DNA of 60,439 nt from Sphingobacteriales bacterium (lineage in GTDB: Bacteria > Bacteroidota > Bacteroidia > UKL13-3), in assembly GCA_021298155.1 (NCBI GenBank), contig JAJTEN010000009.1:1-60439 (forward strand). Reading direction: 5' to 3'. The notes under the pieces are model-generated. The model worked only from the letters and a program-made list of their open reading frames with translations. It was not told the origin of the DNA and did not search any database. Positions 6,187 to 60,439 of this stretch are shown here, in pieces. How positions within the stretch are numbered: position 1 is the first letter of the stretch; every line of letters begins with the position of its first letter. Both the position numbers and the translations under genes were made by a program.

Positions 6187-6214
6187 GGACTATGGTCCAT
6201 GGTCCATGGACGAT
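6187..6214. repeat. Heptanucleotide tandem repeat (4 units)
   Basis: Four consecutive 7-bp units: GGACTAT, GGTCCAT, GGTCCAT, GGACGAT, directly abutting the ahcY stop codon (6218-6220). A degenerate fifth unit may precede it at 6180-6186. The unit is partly self-complementary (GTCCATGGAC), so RNA could fold. Same period as the arrays at 7734-7789 and about 58990-59165 but a different sequence. Confidence 0.6.
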
Positions 6215-7733: not shown

Positions 7734-7789
7734 CTTTTAACACTTAACACTTTAAACTTAACACTTAACACTTAAAACTTAAAACTCAA
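7734..7789. repeat. Heptanucleotide tandem repeat abutting the bacilliredoxin start codon
   Basis: Eight consecutive 7-bp units: CTTTTAA, CACTTAA, CACTTTA, AACTTAA, CACTTAA, CACTTAA, AACTTAA, AACTCAA. The array ends three bases before the ATG at 7793, so it forms the whole proximal 5' UTR. Copy-number change would alter leader length or spacing from any promoter. Confidence 0.75.
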
Positions 7790-7792
7790 AAT

Positions 7793-51800: not shown

Positions 51801-52526
51801 TTATTTGTATTGCTGCAACTTCGCTTCCATACTCAAGGTAGTGTGCGGAACTGCGCGCAAACGCTCTTTTGAAATGAGCTTACCTGTAACTTTACAAATA
51901 CCATAAGTTTTGTTTTCAATACGGATAAGTGCATTCTCTAAGTTTTCAATAAATTTACGTTGGCGTGCGGCAAGCTGACTCAAATATTCTTTTTCTGAGG
52001 TTGATGCACCATCTTCTAGTTTATTGTATGAATTATCTGTTTCTGAACTGCCATTAATACCTGGGTTCGACATTTGCGCAAGTAGATTGTTCAATTCTTC
52101 CTTAGCCACAGATAGCTTTTTATTGATGAGTTGCTTAAATTCATTTAAATCATCATCACTATATCTTTTACTATCTGTAATAATTGGAGGTAGTTCCTCT
52201 GGTTTTTCCTCGAAAACCGGAGCTTTACTAATTACTTGCTTGGTTTCTACTCTTGCCTCAACTGATTTTTTACTTTTTATCGGTTTAGGAGCTATAGTAG
52301 GTTTAACAGAAACCTTACTTATTTTGCTTTTATTTGGTGTAGCTTTTTTAGGCTCAAGCTTTTTAGCGGCTACTGCTGCTACAGGTGCCTTCTTAGCTAT
52401 TGTTTTAGCTATCGGTTTGCTTATTACTTGAGTGGCTTTTTTAGGTGCTGCTTTTTTTACTGCTGTTTTTACAACTTTTTTAGGCGCTATCTTCTTTACC
52501 ACCTTCTTGGCAGCGGTTTTAACCAC
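51801..52526 (-). CDS. TraR/DksA-family protein domain, downstream (-1) frame of the fused gene
   Basis: 241 residues if started alone at 52526, but the natural product probably begins at 53128. Residues 1-60 continue the Lys/Ala/Val repeats of the upstream frame; about 120-241 are a TraR/DksA domain: YSDDDLNEFKQLINKKL, QLAARQRKFIENLENALIRIE and YGICKVTGKLISKERL with VPHTTLS. DksA-type proteins bind RNA polymerase. Only one Cys (GICKVTGK) replaces the usual four-Cys zinc finger, as in other Bacteroidota copies. It lies between ileS and lspA, a position often seen in this phylum. Start uncertain. Confidence 0.75.
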   Translation of the reverse strand: MVKTAAKKVVKKIAPKKVVKTAVKKAAPKKATQVISKPIAKTIAKKAPVAAVAAKKLEPKKATPNKSKISKVSVKPTIAPKPIKSKKSVEARVETKQVISKAPVFEEKPEELPPIITDSKRYSDDDLNEFKQLINKKLSVAKEELNNLLAQMSNPGINGSSETDNSYNKLEDGASTSEKEYLSQLAARQRKFIENLENALIRIENKTYGICKVTGKLISKERLRAVPHTTLSMEAKLQQYK

Positions 52527-53128
52527 TTTCTTTGGTGTAACTTTTTTGGCGCTACCTTCTTTACCACTTTCTTAGGAGCAGTTTTTACCACTTTCTTTGG
52601 CGTAACTTTTTTAGGTGCTAGCTTTTTTACTGCTTTCTTGGCTATGGTTTTAACCACTTTCTTAGGTGCTACTTTCTTTAGCACTTTTTTAGCTATGGTT
52701 TTCGCCGCTTTCTTAGGCGCTACTTTTTTTACCACTTTTTTAGGTGCTACCTTTTTTATGGTTTTCTTGGTTGCAGTTTTCACCACTTTTTTAGGTGCTA
52801 GCTTTTTTACTGCTTTCTTGGCTGCAGTTTTCACTGCTTTTTTAGGCGCAAGCTTCTTGGGTGCTACTTTTGCAGTTTTTTTGGCAATTGGTTTGCTTAC
52901 TTTTTTAATCGGCTCTTTTTTCTTTGCTACTTTAGCAAGTAGTTTTACCACTTTTTGGCTTGCTACTTTCTTCACAAGCGCTTTTTTAACAGCTGCTTTT
53001 TTACTCACCACTTTGGTTACTTTTTTAGCAACAACTTTTTTAACAGCTGCTTTTTTTGCTGCTACTTTTTTAGGTGCAGCCTTAACTGCTGCCTTTTTTC
53101 CTGTGCTTTTTGTAATTTTCTTAGCCAT
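52496..53128 (-). CDS. Histone-H1-like Lys/Ala-rich repeat protein, upstream frame of the fused gene
   Basis: 210 residues built from degenerate KKVAPKKVVKT-type repeats (Lys, Ala, Val, Pro, Thr), like bacterial histone-H1 homologues that bind DNA. It starts with MAKKITKSTGKKAAV 3 bp after the ileS stop. Its last 16 residues (from LHQRKWLKPL) no longer fit the repeat, because the frame leaves the repeat at the A6 run 52542-52547; a -1 shift there restores APKKVTPKK and runs into the DksA-like domain. A antisense ORF of 235 codons here is a shadow of the low-complexity repeat. Confidence 0.7.
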   Translation of the reverse strand: MAKKITKSTGKKAAVKAAPKKVAAKKAAVKKVVAKKVTKVVSKKAAVKKALVKKVASQKVVKLLAKVAKKKEPIKKVSKPIAKKTAKVAPKKLAPKKAVKTAAKKAVKKLAPKKVVKTATKKTIKKVAPKKVVKKVAPKKAAKTIAKKVLKKVAPKKVVKTIAKKAVKKLAPKKVTPKKVVKTAPKKVVKKVAPKKLHQRKWLKPLPRRW

Positions 53129-56594: not shown

Positions 56595-58949
56595 TTACTC
56601 CTCAATATCTGCTGGTTCAAATTCTACTAAAGTGGTTCCCAATTCTTTTTTGTTGTTGATGTTTTTCTCTAATGATAACAACAAAGAAGGCAGCAATAAG
56701 AGATTCATAAGCATGCCAAAAATTAATGAAATGGAGGTTAAAATGCCCAAGGCTACGGTACCGCCAAAGTTAGATGCTGCAAAAATAATAAAGCCTGCAA
56801 AGAGGGCAATCGCCGTGTAAATAATACTCGGACCAGCTTCTAATAGGCTTTCTGGAATGGCAATTTTCATATCCCAGTTATGTTTTTTAAGCGAGTGTCG
56901 GTATTTGGCCAAATAGTGGATGGTAAAATCTACCACAATGCCATAGGCAATACTAAAAATGATAATAGTGGAAGGTTTAAGTCGAATGTCGAAAAAGCCC
57001 ATGATACCAAAGGTCATGATGAGTGGAATGATATTTGGAACCAAGGAAATAAGCACCATTTTCCAACTAAAGAACAGAAAAGCCATCATGATAGAAATGA
57101 TAACCAAGGCCATTATCATGCTTTGCAATAAGTTATCGATTAGATAATCATTGCCTTTTAAAAAGATGGCACTGGTTCCCGTAATGCGCACATCATATTG
57201 GTTTTTTGGGAAAATAGAATCAATTTTTTGTTGTACTTGTTTAGTCAGCCTTTTCATTTCCACCGATCCAATGTCGGCCATCTGTAAACTGATACGTGCG
57301 GTTCTAAAATCAGTATCGATCATAGAGCTTAATAGGTTATTTTTGCCATCACCTTTAGGTAAATAATTTACCATTTCAGAGATATCTACCACGCTAGGTA
57401 CTACATAATATCGTTCGTCTCCTTGGTGCATGCCCTGGTTGGCAAACTTTATAAAATCTACTACAGAAGTTGGTTTAGAAAGCTCCGGGAATTGCGCTAG
57501 TTCTTTCTGTAACCTGTTCATTTTTTGCAGGGTGGCATAATCTTTCATGCCATCTTTTCTTTTGGTATCGATTTTTATTTCAAAAGGTAAAACGCCTTTT
57601 AAGTGTTTTTCGAAAAACTTTAAATCAACCAAAACCGGATCATTTTCCGGCAAATCATCTACCACATATCCCATGTTTCTTACCTGTAAGGATCCAAATA
57701 CAGAAAGTATCAACAACAAAATGGTAGCTCCATAAATGTAACGGCGTTTGTGGTGAACCAACTCATAGCACTTGTCTAAAATGGCATTTAGGCTTTTGTT
57801 GTTTAAGTGTTTGGTGTGTTTTTGTTTTGGCGGTGGTAAATAACTGTAAACAATTGGGATAAATACAAGGGAAACAATATACACAATAAGGATAACAATT
57901 CCCGAGATAATAGAGAATTGATCTAGCATAGCGCTTCCAGAAAAACTAAATACCACAAATCCAACTGCGGTGGTTGCATTGGTGAGTAATAGGGCTAGGC
58001 CATTTTTGGAAATAAGTCGCAAAATAGCCAGCATTTTATTGCCGTGTTTGGTGAATTCTTGGTGATAAACGTTGAGCAAATAAATGCAATTTTGAACGCC
58101 AATAATCACCATAAGTGGGGGTAAAATACCGGTTAAAATGGTTATTTTATAATTGAATAATGCCAATAAGCCCATAGTGGCAATTACTCCGATTATTACT
58201 ACAATGAGCGAGAAAACAACCGCTGAAATGAAGCGAAAGAATAAAAAGATAAAAATGGCTGTTACCAAAATCGAGAGGTAGGTAAAAATCTTTATCTCTT
58301 CGCTCACTTTAGAGCTCATCATGGTCCTTACATAGGGCAGGCCAGAGAAATGCATTTCGCAAGTATTGGCTGAACCAAAGGCTCTTACTTTTTCCTCAAT
58401 GCCTTTTACGAGTGGAATTCGGTCTTTGCTGTCGAGCTGTTTTTTATTGAGGTTTACGGCTAAAATAACCAAGTTAGCACTTGGATTGTACAATAATCCG
58501 TGATAAAATTTTAAAGATTTGATTACCGCATGGAAAGAATCGAGTTCGAGCTGGGTTTTTGGTTTGCGGGTAAGCAAGGGTTTTGCTTGTAATTTTTCGA
58601 GTGAGTCGTTTCTTTCCAGGTAATAGGCCCTGTTAATAGAAAGCACCTTGTCTACGCCCTCAATGGATTCAATATCATCACATAAATCGTACAGCTTATT
58701 AAAAAAATCGAGTTCAAAGAGTTTTTCACTTTGTGTTCCAATTACCAAAATATTACCATCTTCACCAAAGGTTTCCTTAAACTTAATATATTCAATAAAA
58801 TCTGGGTCGTCTTTTGGCACTACTTTGGCAAAATCGTATGTCATTTGCACCTTGGTAGCAAAATAGCCAAAAAACAAAGTTGTTAGGCCTAGGGCTATCA
58901 AGAGCCAAAAGCGATTCCGAATGCAAAAAGAGCCAAAACGATTCCACAT
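56595..58949 (-). CDS. MMPL/RND-superfamily transporter
   Basis: 784 residues with two halves, each a membrane helix plus a periplasmic loop and a block of helices about 235-410 and 620-780. The halves repeat: GILPPLMVIIGVQNCIYLLN in the first, SIAYGIVVDFTIHYLAKYRH in the second, both with the Asp or Asn residues typical of RND relay helices. Predicted exporter of lipids, hopanoids or similar hydrophobic molecules. I chose ATG 58949 (MWNRFGSFC); the frame opens 34 codons upstream in a repeat-derived Lys/Gln-rich stretch that should not be coding. Substrate unknown. Confidence 0.86.
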   Translation of the reverse strand: MWNRFGSFCIRNRFWLLIALGLTTLFFGYFATKVQMTYDFAKVVPKDDPDFIEYIKFKETFGEDGNILVIGTQSEKLFELDFFNKLYDLCDDIESIEGVDKVLSINRAYYLERNDSLEKLQAKPLLTRKPKTQLELDSFHAVIKSLKFYHGLLYNPSANLVILAVNLNKKQLDSKDRIPLVKGIEEKVRAFGSANTCEMHFSGLPYVRTMMSSKVSEEIKIFTYLSILVTAIFIFLFFRFISAVVFSLIVVIIGVIATMGLLALFNYKITILTGILPPLMVIIGVQNCIYLLNVYHQEFTKHGNKMLAILRLISKNGLALLLTNATTAVGFVVFSFSGSAMLDQFSIISGIVILIVYIVSLVFIPIVYSYLPPPKQKHTKHLNNKSLNAILDKCYELVHHKRRYIYGATILLLILSVFGSLQVRNMGYVVDDLPENDPVLVDLKFFEKHLKGVLPFEIKIDTKRKDGMKDYATLQKMNRLQKELAQFPELSKPTSVVDFIKFANQGMHQGDERYYVVPSVVDISEMVNYLPKGDGKNNLLSSMIDTDFRTARISLQMADIGSVEMKRLTKQVQQKIDSIFPKNQYDVRITGTSAIFLKGNDYLIDNLLQSMIMALVIISIMMAFLFFSWKMVLISLVPNIIPLIMTFGIMGFFDIRLKPSTIIIFSIAYGIVVDFTIHYLAKYRHSLKKHNWDMKIAIPESLLEAGPSIIYTAIALFAGFIIFAASNFGGTVALGILTSISLIFGMLMNLLLLPSLLLSLEKNINNKKELGTTLVEFEPADIEE

Positions 58950-58989
58950 AGACCGCAAAAGTAAGTAAAATTGAATGGAGTTTGGTGTG

Positions 58990-59165
58990 AATTTTTTGCT
59001 GCTGGCTTTTAGCTTTTGGCCTTTAGCCTTTAGCTTTTGCTCCTTCGACATTCGAAATTTAGCGTTCGGTGTTCGGCGTTTTTGGCTTCTAGCTTCTGGC
59101 CACTAGCTTCTGGCTTTTGCTCCTTCGACATTCGAAATTCAGCGTTCGGTGTTCGGCGTTATTGG
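58990..59165. repeat. Degenerate heptanucleotide array with an embedded 48-bp direct repeat
   Basis: Almost the whole spacer falls into 7-bp units such as CTTTTAG, CTTTAGC, CTTCTGG, ACATTCG, GTGTTCG. A 48-bp stretch (59033-59080) recurs at 59113-59160 with one mismatch, 80 bp apart. It supplies the upstream end of the lipoprotein gene at 59149 and overlaps the false N-terminal extension of the MMPL gene. Not CRISPR: there are no unique spacers. Confidence 0.75.
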
Positions 59166-59772
59166 GATTTCGAATTTAGGACTACTTTCTGTATTTATCC
59201 TAGTAAACTTCATATCCTGCAAACCAGACCCAGAACGCATTCCAGATAAGCACATTTATTATTACCTAACAGCCGAGCAACTGGCAAAAACTCCTTACTT
59301 TACTAACCCTGCTTTTGATACCCTAAGCTTTGTAAGCAACCAAAACGATACAGTTGTTTTTGCTAAAACTACAGTGGATAGTGGCTGGTATAGAGAAATA
59401 GATTTTAACCCAGGTGTAGAATTTACAACATACCATTACTACCAACAAATTAGCGCAAACTACCAAACTATAAAAGGGGATGGGAGTTTTGGGGTTAAAA
59501 TTATTAAAAAAAGGCAAAACGGAGTTTTTGAGATTTTCGAATATTTATTCAATGATTTCAAATTTTACGATGGGTTAAACACATTAAATGATAAGTCATA
59601 CTCTAGATATTTAGGTGAAATAAATCTAAGAAATAAAAAATTTACAAATACAATATATTCATTACATAACTACGAAGATAGTACAGCGTTTTGTTACATA
59701 AATTTGGAAAAGGGCGTTTTCTATTTAAACGATAGATTTAAAAATAATACATTATTACTAATCAATGAATAA
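59149..59772 (+). CDS. Lipoprotein paralogous to the gene at 1-537 (cassette copy 2)
   Basis: 207 residues from a GTG at 59149; this GTG belongs to a heptamer unit and no ATG is in frame. Residues 8-23 are a hydrophobic signal, then Cys24 in FISCKPD as a lipobox. The rest has no recognised domain: YYYLTAEQL, FDTLSFVSNQNDTV, YHYYQQI, then a beta-rich KGDGSFGVKIIKKRQNG region and a C-terminal stretch of short beta strands. It aligns with the truncated first gene in the order YYL, DTLxFV, YHYY. It lies 1 bp before the heparinase-like gene, so they are coupled. Partner of the lyase-like protein, role unknown. Confidence 0.65.
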   Translation: MFGVIGISNLGLLSVFILVNFISCKPDPERIPDKHIYYYLTAEQLAKTPYFTNPAFDTLSFVSNQNDTVVFAKTTVDSGWYREIDFNPGVEFTTYHYYQQISANYQTIKGDGSFGVKIIKKRQNGVFEIFEYLFNDFKFYDGLNTLNDKSYSRYLGEINLRNKKFTNTIYSLHNYEDSTAFCYINLEKGVFYLNDRFKNNTLLLINE

Positions 59773-59773
59773 T

Positions 59774-60439
59774 ATGAAACAACTTTTAATCCTTATTACA
59801 ATGACCTATTCAATTGTAGTATTCAGTCAACCATGCACAAATGTTGAAGAATTTAATAGAAAAAAGCATAAGGTTGGTGGCACCTATGGACATCCATATA
59901 CGATGTTTGATAGATATAATGGTATTAGTTTTGTTAGTACAATTAAAAACATTAGAATTACTATTTCTAAAAAGGGGCAAAATAATCAAGTTTACCTCGC
60001 CTACCAACAAGTATTTAACAATGCAGTTGGAGCAATGCCTAAAGACGATGGAATGATGACGGCAGATGGAAACGTTAGCGATTTAGCCTTATGGGCTAAA
60101 AATAACGCATTTGTATTCTTAATAGGTTTAGATGGAGACGGCAAATTCATGGATACCACAGAATATGCGGGTATAACAAGTTTTGCTAAACGAAACGCAT
60201 TTAGAGATAGAGCTTATCACCCTTACGAACATGATACCACCGTAAATGCTTTCCATCATTTAAAAGGAGATATGCCCGGCAAAATAAAAGATTTAAAAAT
60301 AGGCAGCCGCTCGCTCATGCTTTGGCTAACTTGCTACGATCTTTTAAAGGCTGCCTATGAATTACCCGAACTGCGAGATAGCCTTAGAAATCCCTTTGGC
60401 TTTGCCGATGCAGATAGAAATGGTTTAGCATGTACACCA
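59774..60439 (+). CDS. Heparinase-like exported protein, 3' end cut by window (cassette copy 2)
   Basis: 222 residues without a stop, running off the window. Signal peptide ending VVFSQ, then PCTNVEEFN. Shared with copy 1 (544): MKQLL start, signal end FSQ, HPYTMF, WAKNNAFVFLIGL, and CYDLLKAAYEL, all in the same order and spacing. The start of a toroid fold of heparinase II/III-like lyases is likely; the catalytic part would lie beyond the edge. ATG is 1 bp after the lipoprotein stop. This copy shows no disruption in the visible part. Confidence 0.65.
   Translation, partial: MKQLLILITMTYSIVVFSQPCTNVEEFNRKKHKVGGTYGHPYTMFDRYNGISFVSTIKNIRITISKKGQNNQVYLAYQQVFNNAVGAMPKDDGMMTADGNVSDLALWAKNNAFVFLIGLDGDGKFMDTTEYAGITSFAKRNAFRDRAYHPYEHDTTVNAFHHLKGDMPGKIKDLKIGSRSLMLWLTCYDLLKAAYELPELRDSLRNPFGFADADRNGLACTP

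What the first reader, a model, noticed from the sequence alone, without database searches (positions are those of the whole stretch)
58990..59165. Degenerate heptamer array with a 48-bp direct duplication between an MMPL gene and cassette copy 2
The spacer is built from 7-bp units with drifting sequence and has one internal 80-bp-step duplication. Two other spacers (6187-6214 and 7734-7789) have different units but the same 7-bp period. That common period, not shared sequence, suggests a replication or repair process specific to this lineage. It resembles the short tandemly repeated heptamers known from cyanobacteria.
Basis: seen in the sequence. Interest (0 to 1): 0.55.

Follow-up and report, generated by a model that had tools for sequence, protein, structure and literature searches.

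The report
Seven-base repeats at gene ends
The spacer is one copy of a class of short seven-base repeat blocks that, in this group of freshwater bacteria, lie mostly just behind genes; the seven-base period is real and some block families recur in unrelated relatives, but what they do is not yet shown.

Summary
Period 7 is sharply enriched: 16 arrays in 460 kb of this genome and 62 in 800 kb of a congener, where each other period from 4 to 13 gives at most 3 and shuffles give 0-1 at period 7. Units do share sequence: one degenerate family, RGWCYAT, recurs in 22 of 295 class genomes from 8 families. Differences between units pile up in certain columns instead of drifting freely. A MutS gene is present. 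New here: array edges hug stop codons in 3 of 3 genomes tested; in one of them arrays crowd convergent spacers and nearly avoid divergent ones, often as inverted pairs; at two orthologous gene ends the block type differs between relatives. The nearest known kind is the heptameric intergenic repeats of Xanthomonas and Nostoc. Best reading: 7-nt slippage plus recombination between dispersed copies, kept at gene ends as 3' UTR or terminator-like DNA. The focal copy lies in a divergent spacer, an exception.

The parts
59003..59082 (+). module copy 1: B-type heptamer block (RGCYNNN), linker TTTTGCTCCTTCGA, C-type block (TTCGACA...TTCGGTGTTCGGCG)
59083..59162 (+). module copy 2, 89% identical to copy 1
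59003..59037 (+). B-type block of copy 1 (TGGCTTT TAGCTTT TGGCCTT TAGCCTT TAGCTTT)
59038..59082 (+). linker and C-type block of copy 1; a consensus of this core matches 6, 31, 8, 2 and 26 times in 5 of 19 congeneric genomes (G000, G001, G004, G006, G007)
58950..59002 (-). stretch between the probable MMPL start codon and the array; holds a sequence like the Bacteroidota -7 element TAnnTTTG (consensus recalled), seen also before the gene in relatives
56595..58949 (-). MMPL family transporter gene, probable true start 58949
59149..59772 (+). lipoprotein-like ORF p1 (no Pfam match; lipoprotein by eye); 49% identical copy at G000:C49 with an A-type module pair beside it
59774..60439 (+). ORF p2, cut by the contig end (no Pfam match); 79% identical copy at G000:C49
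6185..6211 (-). A-type block (RGWCYAT) at the stop codon of adenosylhomocysteinase; in G004 a block of the same length lies at the same place with few differences
7737..7791 (+). H-type array (TTAACAC/TTAAAAC) ending 1 bp before the start codon of a disulphide isomerase family gene; no array at the G004 site

Best explanation
The array is a two-copy instance of an 80-bp module made of heptamer blocks, dispersed in five of 19 congeneric genomes. It belongs to a wider class of degenerate period-7 intergenic blocks. Shown: the period; the recurring families; the concentration of changes in certain columns; the adjacency to stop codons in three genomes; frequent inverted pairing in one congener; gain, loss and a difference of block type at orthologous sites. 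Inferred: blocks arise and change copy number by strand slippage in steps of 7 nt, and spread and replace one another by recombination between dispersed copies. They are kept at gene ends because there they serve as, or are harmless beside, 3' UTR and bidirectional terminator hairpins, while divergent promoter spacers reject them. The focal copy lies about 54 bp upstream of the MMPL start in a divergent spacer. It is probably a passenger that came with the neighbouring duplicated gene pair p1-p2; no function for it is shown.
For: Period: 62 arrays at period 7 in 800 kb of G004, 16 in 460 kb of G000 and 19 in 360 kb of G014; other periods from 4 to 13 have at most 4; shuffles of G004 and G000 give 0-1 at period 7. 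Position: in G004 arrays lie in 11 of 41 convergent, 23 of 251 tandem and 1 of 90 divergent spacers (convergent against divergent P = 9e-6, convergent against tandem P = 0.003). Array edge within 12 bp of a stop codon, against random placement inside the same spacers: G004 29 of 58 against 19.1 (0 of 1000 draws reach it), G000 7 of 16 against 3.5 (15 of 1000), G014 5 of 18 against 2.0 (9 of 1000). Hairpins: of 24 neighbouring pairs in G004, 15 are inverted only and 3 direct only; about 42% of 55 clusters fold with z below -2, mean -2.5, median -1.1. Constraint: substitutions concentrated by column 0.451 against a null mean of 0.372, null maximum 0.403 in 500 (101 of 121 arrays); one A array 30 of 30 identical between G000 and G004, which align at 80%. 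Turnover, by my reading: of 14 non-coding anchored G000 clusters, G004 has 5 alike in type and nearly in length, 5 changed in length, 1 changed in type, 3 without the array. Dispersal: module core in 5 of 19 genomes. Passenger: the copy of p1-p2 at C49 also has a two-module array, A-type instead of B-type.
Against: The focal array is in a divergent spacer, folds no better than shuffles on the minus strand (z -0.20) and modestly on the plus strand (z -2.0), and no terminator-like site was found there. G004 arrays are clustered along the contig (39 of 62 in the last 160 kb; three of ten 80-kb blocks have none): the gene-end pattern is clear in the first 640 kb (8 of 34 convergent, 9 of 188 tandem, 0 of 74 divergent; stop-adjacent 16 of 22 against 9.3, 0 of 1000) but weak in the dense last 160 kb (13 of 36 against 9.7, 93 of 1000). 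G014 has no inverted pairs (0 of 10) and arrays in 4 of 27 convergent, 6 of 128 tandem and 3 of 39 divergent spacers; G000 in 3 of 24, 4 of 132 and 3 of 55. In G000 arrays also sit near start codons more than chance (7 against 2.5, 0 of 1000). No transcript data exist here. Slippage alone does not explain a difference of block type at one site.
Confidence: 0.4

Rival explanations
1. Neutral polymerase slippage alone: 7 nt is the length the replicative polymerase slips by (the idea of Mrazek and others, 2007, as cited in PMC4679880 and PMC4692102), and arrays survive where nothing important is disturbed.
For: Explains the period and the lack of one fixed sequence; harmonics at 14, 21 and 28 and a 14-bp difference at L005 fit slippage; intergenic bias; clustering along the contig would fit regions of low constraint.
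Against: RGWCYAT recurs in 8 taxonomic families with the same degenerate positions; changes concentrate in columns; A runs seldom exceed four units (2, 3, 4 and 6 units: 9, 10, 12 and 1 runs); block type differs between orthologous gene ends.
Confidence: 0.27
2. Protein-binding arrays: a nucleoid or regulatory protein reads a fixed step of 7 bp, so sequence families differ but the step and certain columns are kept.
For: Column concentration; near-fixed G, C, A, T columns in A arrays (partly built in by the way arrays were assigned); a constant repeat size with variable sequence is known in Bacillus and a protein reader was proposed there (PMC8161180, section 14 read).
Against: No candidate protein was sought or found; several unrelated families of units in one genome; adjacency to stop codons is unusual for a regulator.
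Confidence: 0.17
3. A mobile element (MITE or REP-like) dispersed by a transposase.
For: The linker-C core is dispersed in 5 of 19 genomes, up to 31 matches in one.
Against: No Y1 transposase match in G000 or G006, which both carry modules; no reverse transcriptase match in G000, G004, G006 or G007; the block beside the core is A-type or B-type. Only these two enzyme families were searched, and target duplications were not tested.
Confidence: 0.11
4. A replication or repair defect specific to this lineage (for example loss of mismatch repair).
For: High array density in the genus; no period-7 arrays in small samples of three sister genera.
Against: MutS_V matches in 39 of 41 genomes, G000 among them with an 870-aa open frame; RGWCYAT in 8 families.
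Confidence: 0.05

Closest known systems
Heptameric intergenic repeats GGGAATC (Xanthomonas) and GGGGA(C/T)T (Nostoc), Rehm and others 2015, PMC4692102 (passages, sections 13 and 16 read)
   Same: 7-nt unit while other SSR lengths are not over-represented; intergenic and dispersed; within 0-50 bp of stop codons or overlapping them; under-represented between divergent genes; clear preference for four units; one degenerate column in Nostoc; inverted repeats mentioned; often at the same genes in two species with length and sequence variation
   Different: Those repeats are also placed close upstream of genes on the non-coding strand; here there are no G tracts, so no quadruplex; many unit families per genome; several degenerate columns; inverted arms common in G004; block type differs at orthologous sites
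TAACTGA direct repeats of Beggiatoaceae, cyanobacteria and 5 Bacteroidetes, MacGregor 2015, PMC4679880 (passages, sections 3 and 12 read)
   Same: Intergenic 7-bp direct repeats; other heptamer repeats beside them in Gramella forsetii and A. sublithincola and larger heptamer assemblages in Elizabethkingia; H-type arrays just before start codons, as at 7737-7791
   Different: TAACTGA dimer absent from the window (up to 1 mismatch) and from the 261 loci (exact); arrays here favour stop codons
Long simple sequence repeats, Mrazek and others 2007 (not read; as summarised in PMC4679880 and PMC4692102)
   Different: That survey counted repeats longer than expected by chance; here arrays are short and degenerate
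Cyanobacterial STRR heptamers (recalled; heptanucleotides of Calothrix mentioned in a passage of PMC4692102)
   Same: Tandem 7-mers
   Different: STRR units are near-exact (recalled); sequences not compared by search
Tandem repeats of constant size but variable sequence in Bacillus, Subirana and Messeguer 2021, PMC8161180 (abstract, section 14 read)
   Same: Size kept while sequence varies between families
   Different: 20-21 and 52 nt, not 7

Membership tests
Heptameric intergenic repeats (Rehm 2015 type) | 7-nt tandem unit, enriched over other periods | tested here: met
Heptameric intergenic repeats (Rehm 2015 type) | mostly in non-coding DNA | tested here: met
   25 of 32 arrays
Heptameric intergenic repeats (Rehm 2015 type) | close to or overlapping stop codons, rare in divergent spacers | tested here: met
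   for the class: stop codons in 3 of 3 genomes; divergent rarity clear in G004 only; the focal array itself does not meet it
Heptameric intergenic repeats (Rehm 2015 type) | G tracts able to form quadruplexes | tested here: not met
   sequence of the array; GGGGAYT dimer in the window not above chance
Heptameric intergenic repeats (Rehm 2015 type) | preference for four units | tested here: inconclusive
   A family only: runs of 2, 3, 4 and 6 units number 9, 10, 12 and 1: a ceiling near four, not a sharp preference
TAACTGA repeats | unit TAACTGA | tested here: not met
Cyanobacterial STRR | near-exact heptamer copies (recalled) | tested here: not met
   degenerate units
REP elements with RAYT transposase | Y1 transposase in the genome | tested here: not met
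   0 matches in G000
Intrinsic terminator | G+C-rich stem followed by a T run at the focal array | tested here: not met
   0 found in 58700-59500
Intrinsic terminator | RNA 3' ends at the arrays | not testable with these tools
   no transcript data
Known structured RNA | match to an Rfam family | tested here: not met
   0 matches up to E 1 in 57500-60439

The most novel reading that the evidence does not exclude
Heptamer blocks of a few fixed degenerate families are exchangeable 3'-end cassettes used across the Bacteroidota. A factor, or an enzyme that lays down DNA in 7-nt steps, recognises the step and certain columns, so that an A block can be replaced by a B block at the same stop codon while place and approximate length are kept.
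Probability: 0.13. Interest if true: 0.82.

Novelty: new variant of a known kind. Interest (0 to 1): 0.45.

Why it matters
Heptamers were reported in 2007 as the most abundant class of long simple repeats in most bacterial genomes (as cited in PMC4679880), without an accepted reason. These genomes give dense, alignable material: the same stop codon carrying different block families in near relatives. That makes it possible to separate slippage, selection and replacement site by site, and to test whether the blocks end transcripts.

Tried and rejected
Stop codons in all three frames as the reason for period 7: over 49 distinct units, stops are 0.49 against 0.45 in permuted units on one strand, 0.35 against 0.34 on the other, both strands 0.27 against 0.18 (about 1.7 sd), either strand 0.57 against 0.61. 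Not supported.

Palindromic units in general: not above permuted units. RGWCYAT is palindromic; that is not a general property.

MutS loss, REP/RAYT and a reverse transcriptase in cis: not supported in G000. Focal array as strong hairpin or terminator: not supported. Rfam: nothing.

Limits. Genes were called by a simple ATG-to-stop rule of at least 70 codons, so contexts are approximate. The 58 A arrays were assigned by requiring G, C and AT at their places in at least two units, and units counted only with 5 of 7 matches to RGWCYAT, so the fixedness of those columns is partly built in; one search is free of the motif, but its loci include many fetched because they matched the focal array or RGWCYAT. 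In one search the reversed-pattern control also hit 6 of 295 genomes (G041, G150, G167, G185, G206, G312). In one search, 13 of 29 clusters could not be anchored in the 800 kb of G004, and 2 of the 16 anchored (C4:25266, C51:61802) lie in open reading frames and were dropped. In one search, L108 and L109 were left out for lack of upstream DNA, and L115-L118 were not examined. One search counted a run of N in G083 as a repeat; one search repeats the count without N (2 instead of 3 at period 7). The stretches were chosen on contigs, and several at the very places, known to hold RGWCYAT, so searches are no blind sample of those genomes; two stretches of G167 came back as 213 and 216 bp and were not used. 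Stretches of G004 were chosen for synteny with the window, around hits known, or to fill the contig; together they are 800 of 895 kb of that contig. Four stretches of contig C5 were fetched and not used in counts. G014 contig C49 and contigs of G003 and G022 were known from hits.

Full report
What is there. The spacer at 59003-59162 is two head-to-tail copies of an 80-bp module, 89% identical. Each copy reads as heptamers in one phase: five B-type units (TGGCTTT TAGCTTT ...), a linker TTTTGCTCCTTCGA, then C-type units (TTCGACA, TTCGAAA, TTCAGCG or TTTAGCG, TTCGGTG, TTCGGCG). The two other spacers it named are confirmed.

Is it chance. No. In a 400-kb sample outside the window there are 13 period-7 arrays against 0-1 at each other period from 4 to 13. 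Over 460 kb of G000 (window included) it is 16, over 800 kb of one contig of the congener G004 62, and over 360 kb of G014 19, with harmonics at 14, 21 and 28. Five local shuffles of G000 give 0 and of G004 0-1 at period 7. In one search, 25 of 32 arrays were intergenic. The arrays are not even along G004: 39 of 62 lie in the last 160 kb and three of ten 80-kb blocks have none. In small samples of other genera of the family there were none (G019, G022, G024) or no clear lead of period 7 (G021, 3 arrays), and the congener G003 had 2 in 80 kb, no more than at periods 6 and 10.

Not confined to the lineage and not sequence-free. One degenerate unit, RGWCYAT, three times in a row, occurs in 22 of 295 genomes of the class, 10 of 155 genera, 8 families; the reversed pattern, used as control, occurs in 6 of 295. 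Within the genus it is in 17 of 19. In stretches of genomes from other families period 7 again leads, though those stretches were chosen for carrying RGWCYAT. In 101 of 121 arrays that could be tested, substitutions between units are concentrated in columns (0.451; null mean 0.372, maximum 0.403 of 500). In A arrays the variable columns are R, W and Y (partly built in). Runs of A units of 2, 3, 4 and 6 number 9, 10, 12 and 1. So the units do not simply drift.

The module. The linker-C core is found in 5 of 19 congeneric genomes (G000 6, G001 31, G004 8, G006 2, G007 26 matches). The block in front of the core is often A-type or B-type. At one orthologous gene end G000 has an A block while G004 and G006 have a B block; in G000 and G004 the stop codon lies inside the block (proteins end in WLVSR and WNLAVSR; the G006 frame was read by eye only). 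At a second, L183 of G001 and L197 of G004, the proteins end alike and the shared stop codon TAG opens an A block in one and a B block in the other, with both flanks aligned. The gene pair p1-p2 beside the focal array has a copy at G000:C49 (49% and 79% identical) whose two-module array is of A type.

Turnover. Upstream of MMPL, 2 of 34 related loci examined have period-7 arrays (L080 and L093, each different from the window's); the closest relative, L079 (93% protein identity), has none. Of 29 array clusters in G000, 16 could be anchored in 800 kb of G004; 2 of these lie in reading frames and were dropped. Of the other 14, by my reading, 5 were alike in type and nearly in length (one 30 of 30 identical), 5 changed in length, 1 changed in type and 3 had no array in G004. 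At C4:19716 the differences fall in R, W and Y columns only, or equally one unit was gained and one lost.

Where they sit. In G004, arrays occur in 11 of 41 convergent, 23 of 251 tandem and 1 of 90 divergent spacers (P = 9e-6 for convergent against divergent). With a lower threshold, G000 has 3 of 24, 4 of 132 and 3 of 55, and G014 has 4 of 27, 6 of 128 and 3 of 39, so the divergent rarity is clear only in G004. Against random placement within the same spacers, edges within 12 bp of a stop codon are in excess in all three genomes (29 against 19.1; 7 against 3.5; 5 against 2.0). Split, G004 shows it clearly in the first 640 kb (16 of 22 against 9.3) and weakly in the dense last 160 kb (13 of 36 against 9.7, 93 of 1000 draws reach it). 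Near start codons there is an excess in G000 only (7 against 2.5), two of them H-type arrays directly before start codons, as at 7737-7791. In G004, 15 of 24 neighbouring pairs are inverted and 3 direct; in G000 3 of 7 and 1 of 7; in G014 none of 10. About 42% of 55 clusters in G004 fold with z below -2 (median -1.1). This is the anatomy of extended 3'-end hairpins, but no transcript data were available.

The focal copy. It starts about 54 bp upstream of the probable MMPL start codon (58949), outside the promoter-like TAnnTTTG (consensus recalled) seen in relatives. It is in a divergent spacer, contains no terminator-like site, folds no better than shuffles on one strand and modestly on the other and matches no Rfam family. 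I take it for a passenger that came with p1-p2.

What makes them. A MutS gene is present in 39 of 41 genomes, G000 among them. G000 has no Y1 transposase and no reverse transcriptase match. Slippage in 7-nt steps, proposed earlier, fits the period and a 14-bp difference, but the difference of block type needs recombination between dispersed copies or an unknown process.

Known or new. Papers seen: PMC4692102 (passages, sections 13 and 16), PMC4679880 (passages, sections 3 and 12), PMC8161180 (abstract, section 14), PMC6749651, PMC4060949 and PMC12699852 (passages; the last notes a high density of short tandem repeats in Bacteroidota); Mrazek 2007 not read. Rehm and others describe the same kind: intergenic heptamers near stop codons, rare in divergent spacers, about four units. 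Theirs are G-rich and thought of as quadruplexes; here A arrays without G tracts also seldom exceed four units, so a quadruplex is not needed for short arrays. In the six paper searches that were answered I saw no account of multi-family degenerate heptamers, of a difference of block type at orthologous sites or of heptamer-armed inverted repeats at gene ends in Bacteroidota; only listings and the papers named were looked at, and many journals are not held.

Noticed in passing
window 7737-7791: TTAACAC/TTAAAAC array ends 1 bp before the start codon of a disulphide isomerase family gene, as TAACTGA repeats do in Beggiatoaceae; four further H-type arrays lie within 28 bp before a start codon in G000, G004 or G014, others do not.
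   Followed up: partly
window 59774-60439 and G000:C49:1-501 (L002): The window contig ends inside ORF p2 and contig C49 begins inside a 79% identical copy; the assembly probably broke at this repeat.
   Followed up: partly
G004:C1 640001-800000 (L212-L218, L246): 39 of 62 period-7 arrays of the 800 kb lie in this 160 kb; why this zone is so rich is not known.
   Followed up: partly
L195, L174, L179, L187 (G001): Behind the C block follows another dispersed repeat with GGGGCGTTAGCCCTGAT palindromes.
   Followed up: no
L193, L173, L046: Blocks that read by eye as period 8 (CTTTGTTC CTTAGTTA CTTTGTAG) follow the module at this gene end.
   Followed up: no
L049:153-309 (G000:C51): About 158 bp of heptamer blocks (AGARTCC, GCGAGAA and their complements) arranged as a palindrome by eye; 34 bp at the G004 site.
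   Followed up: partly
window 52473-52855: Tandem repeats of 12-129 bp, probably inside a repetitive coding region.
   Followed up: no
G167: The reversed control pattern, also a palindromic heptamer, has 8 and 9 hits in one genome of another family, which may have its own heptamer family.
   Followed up: no
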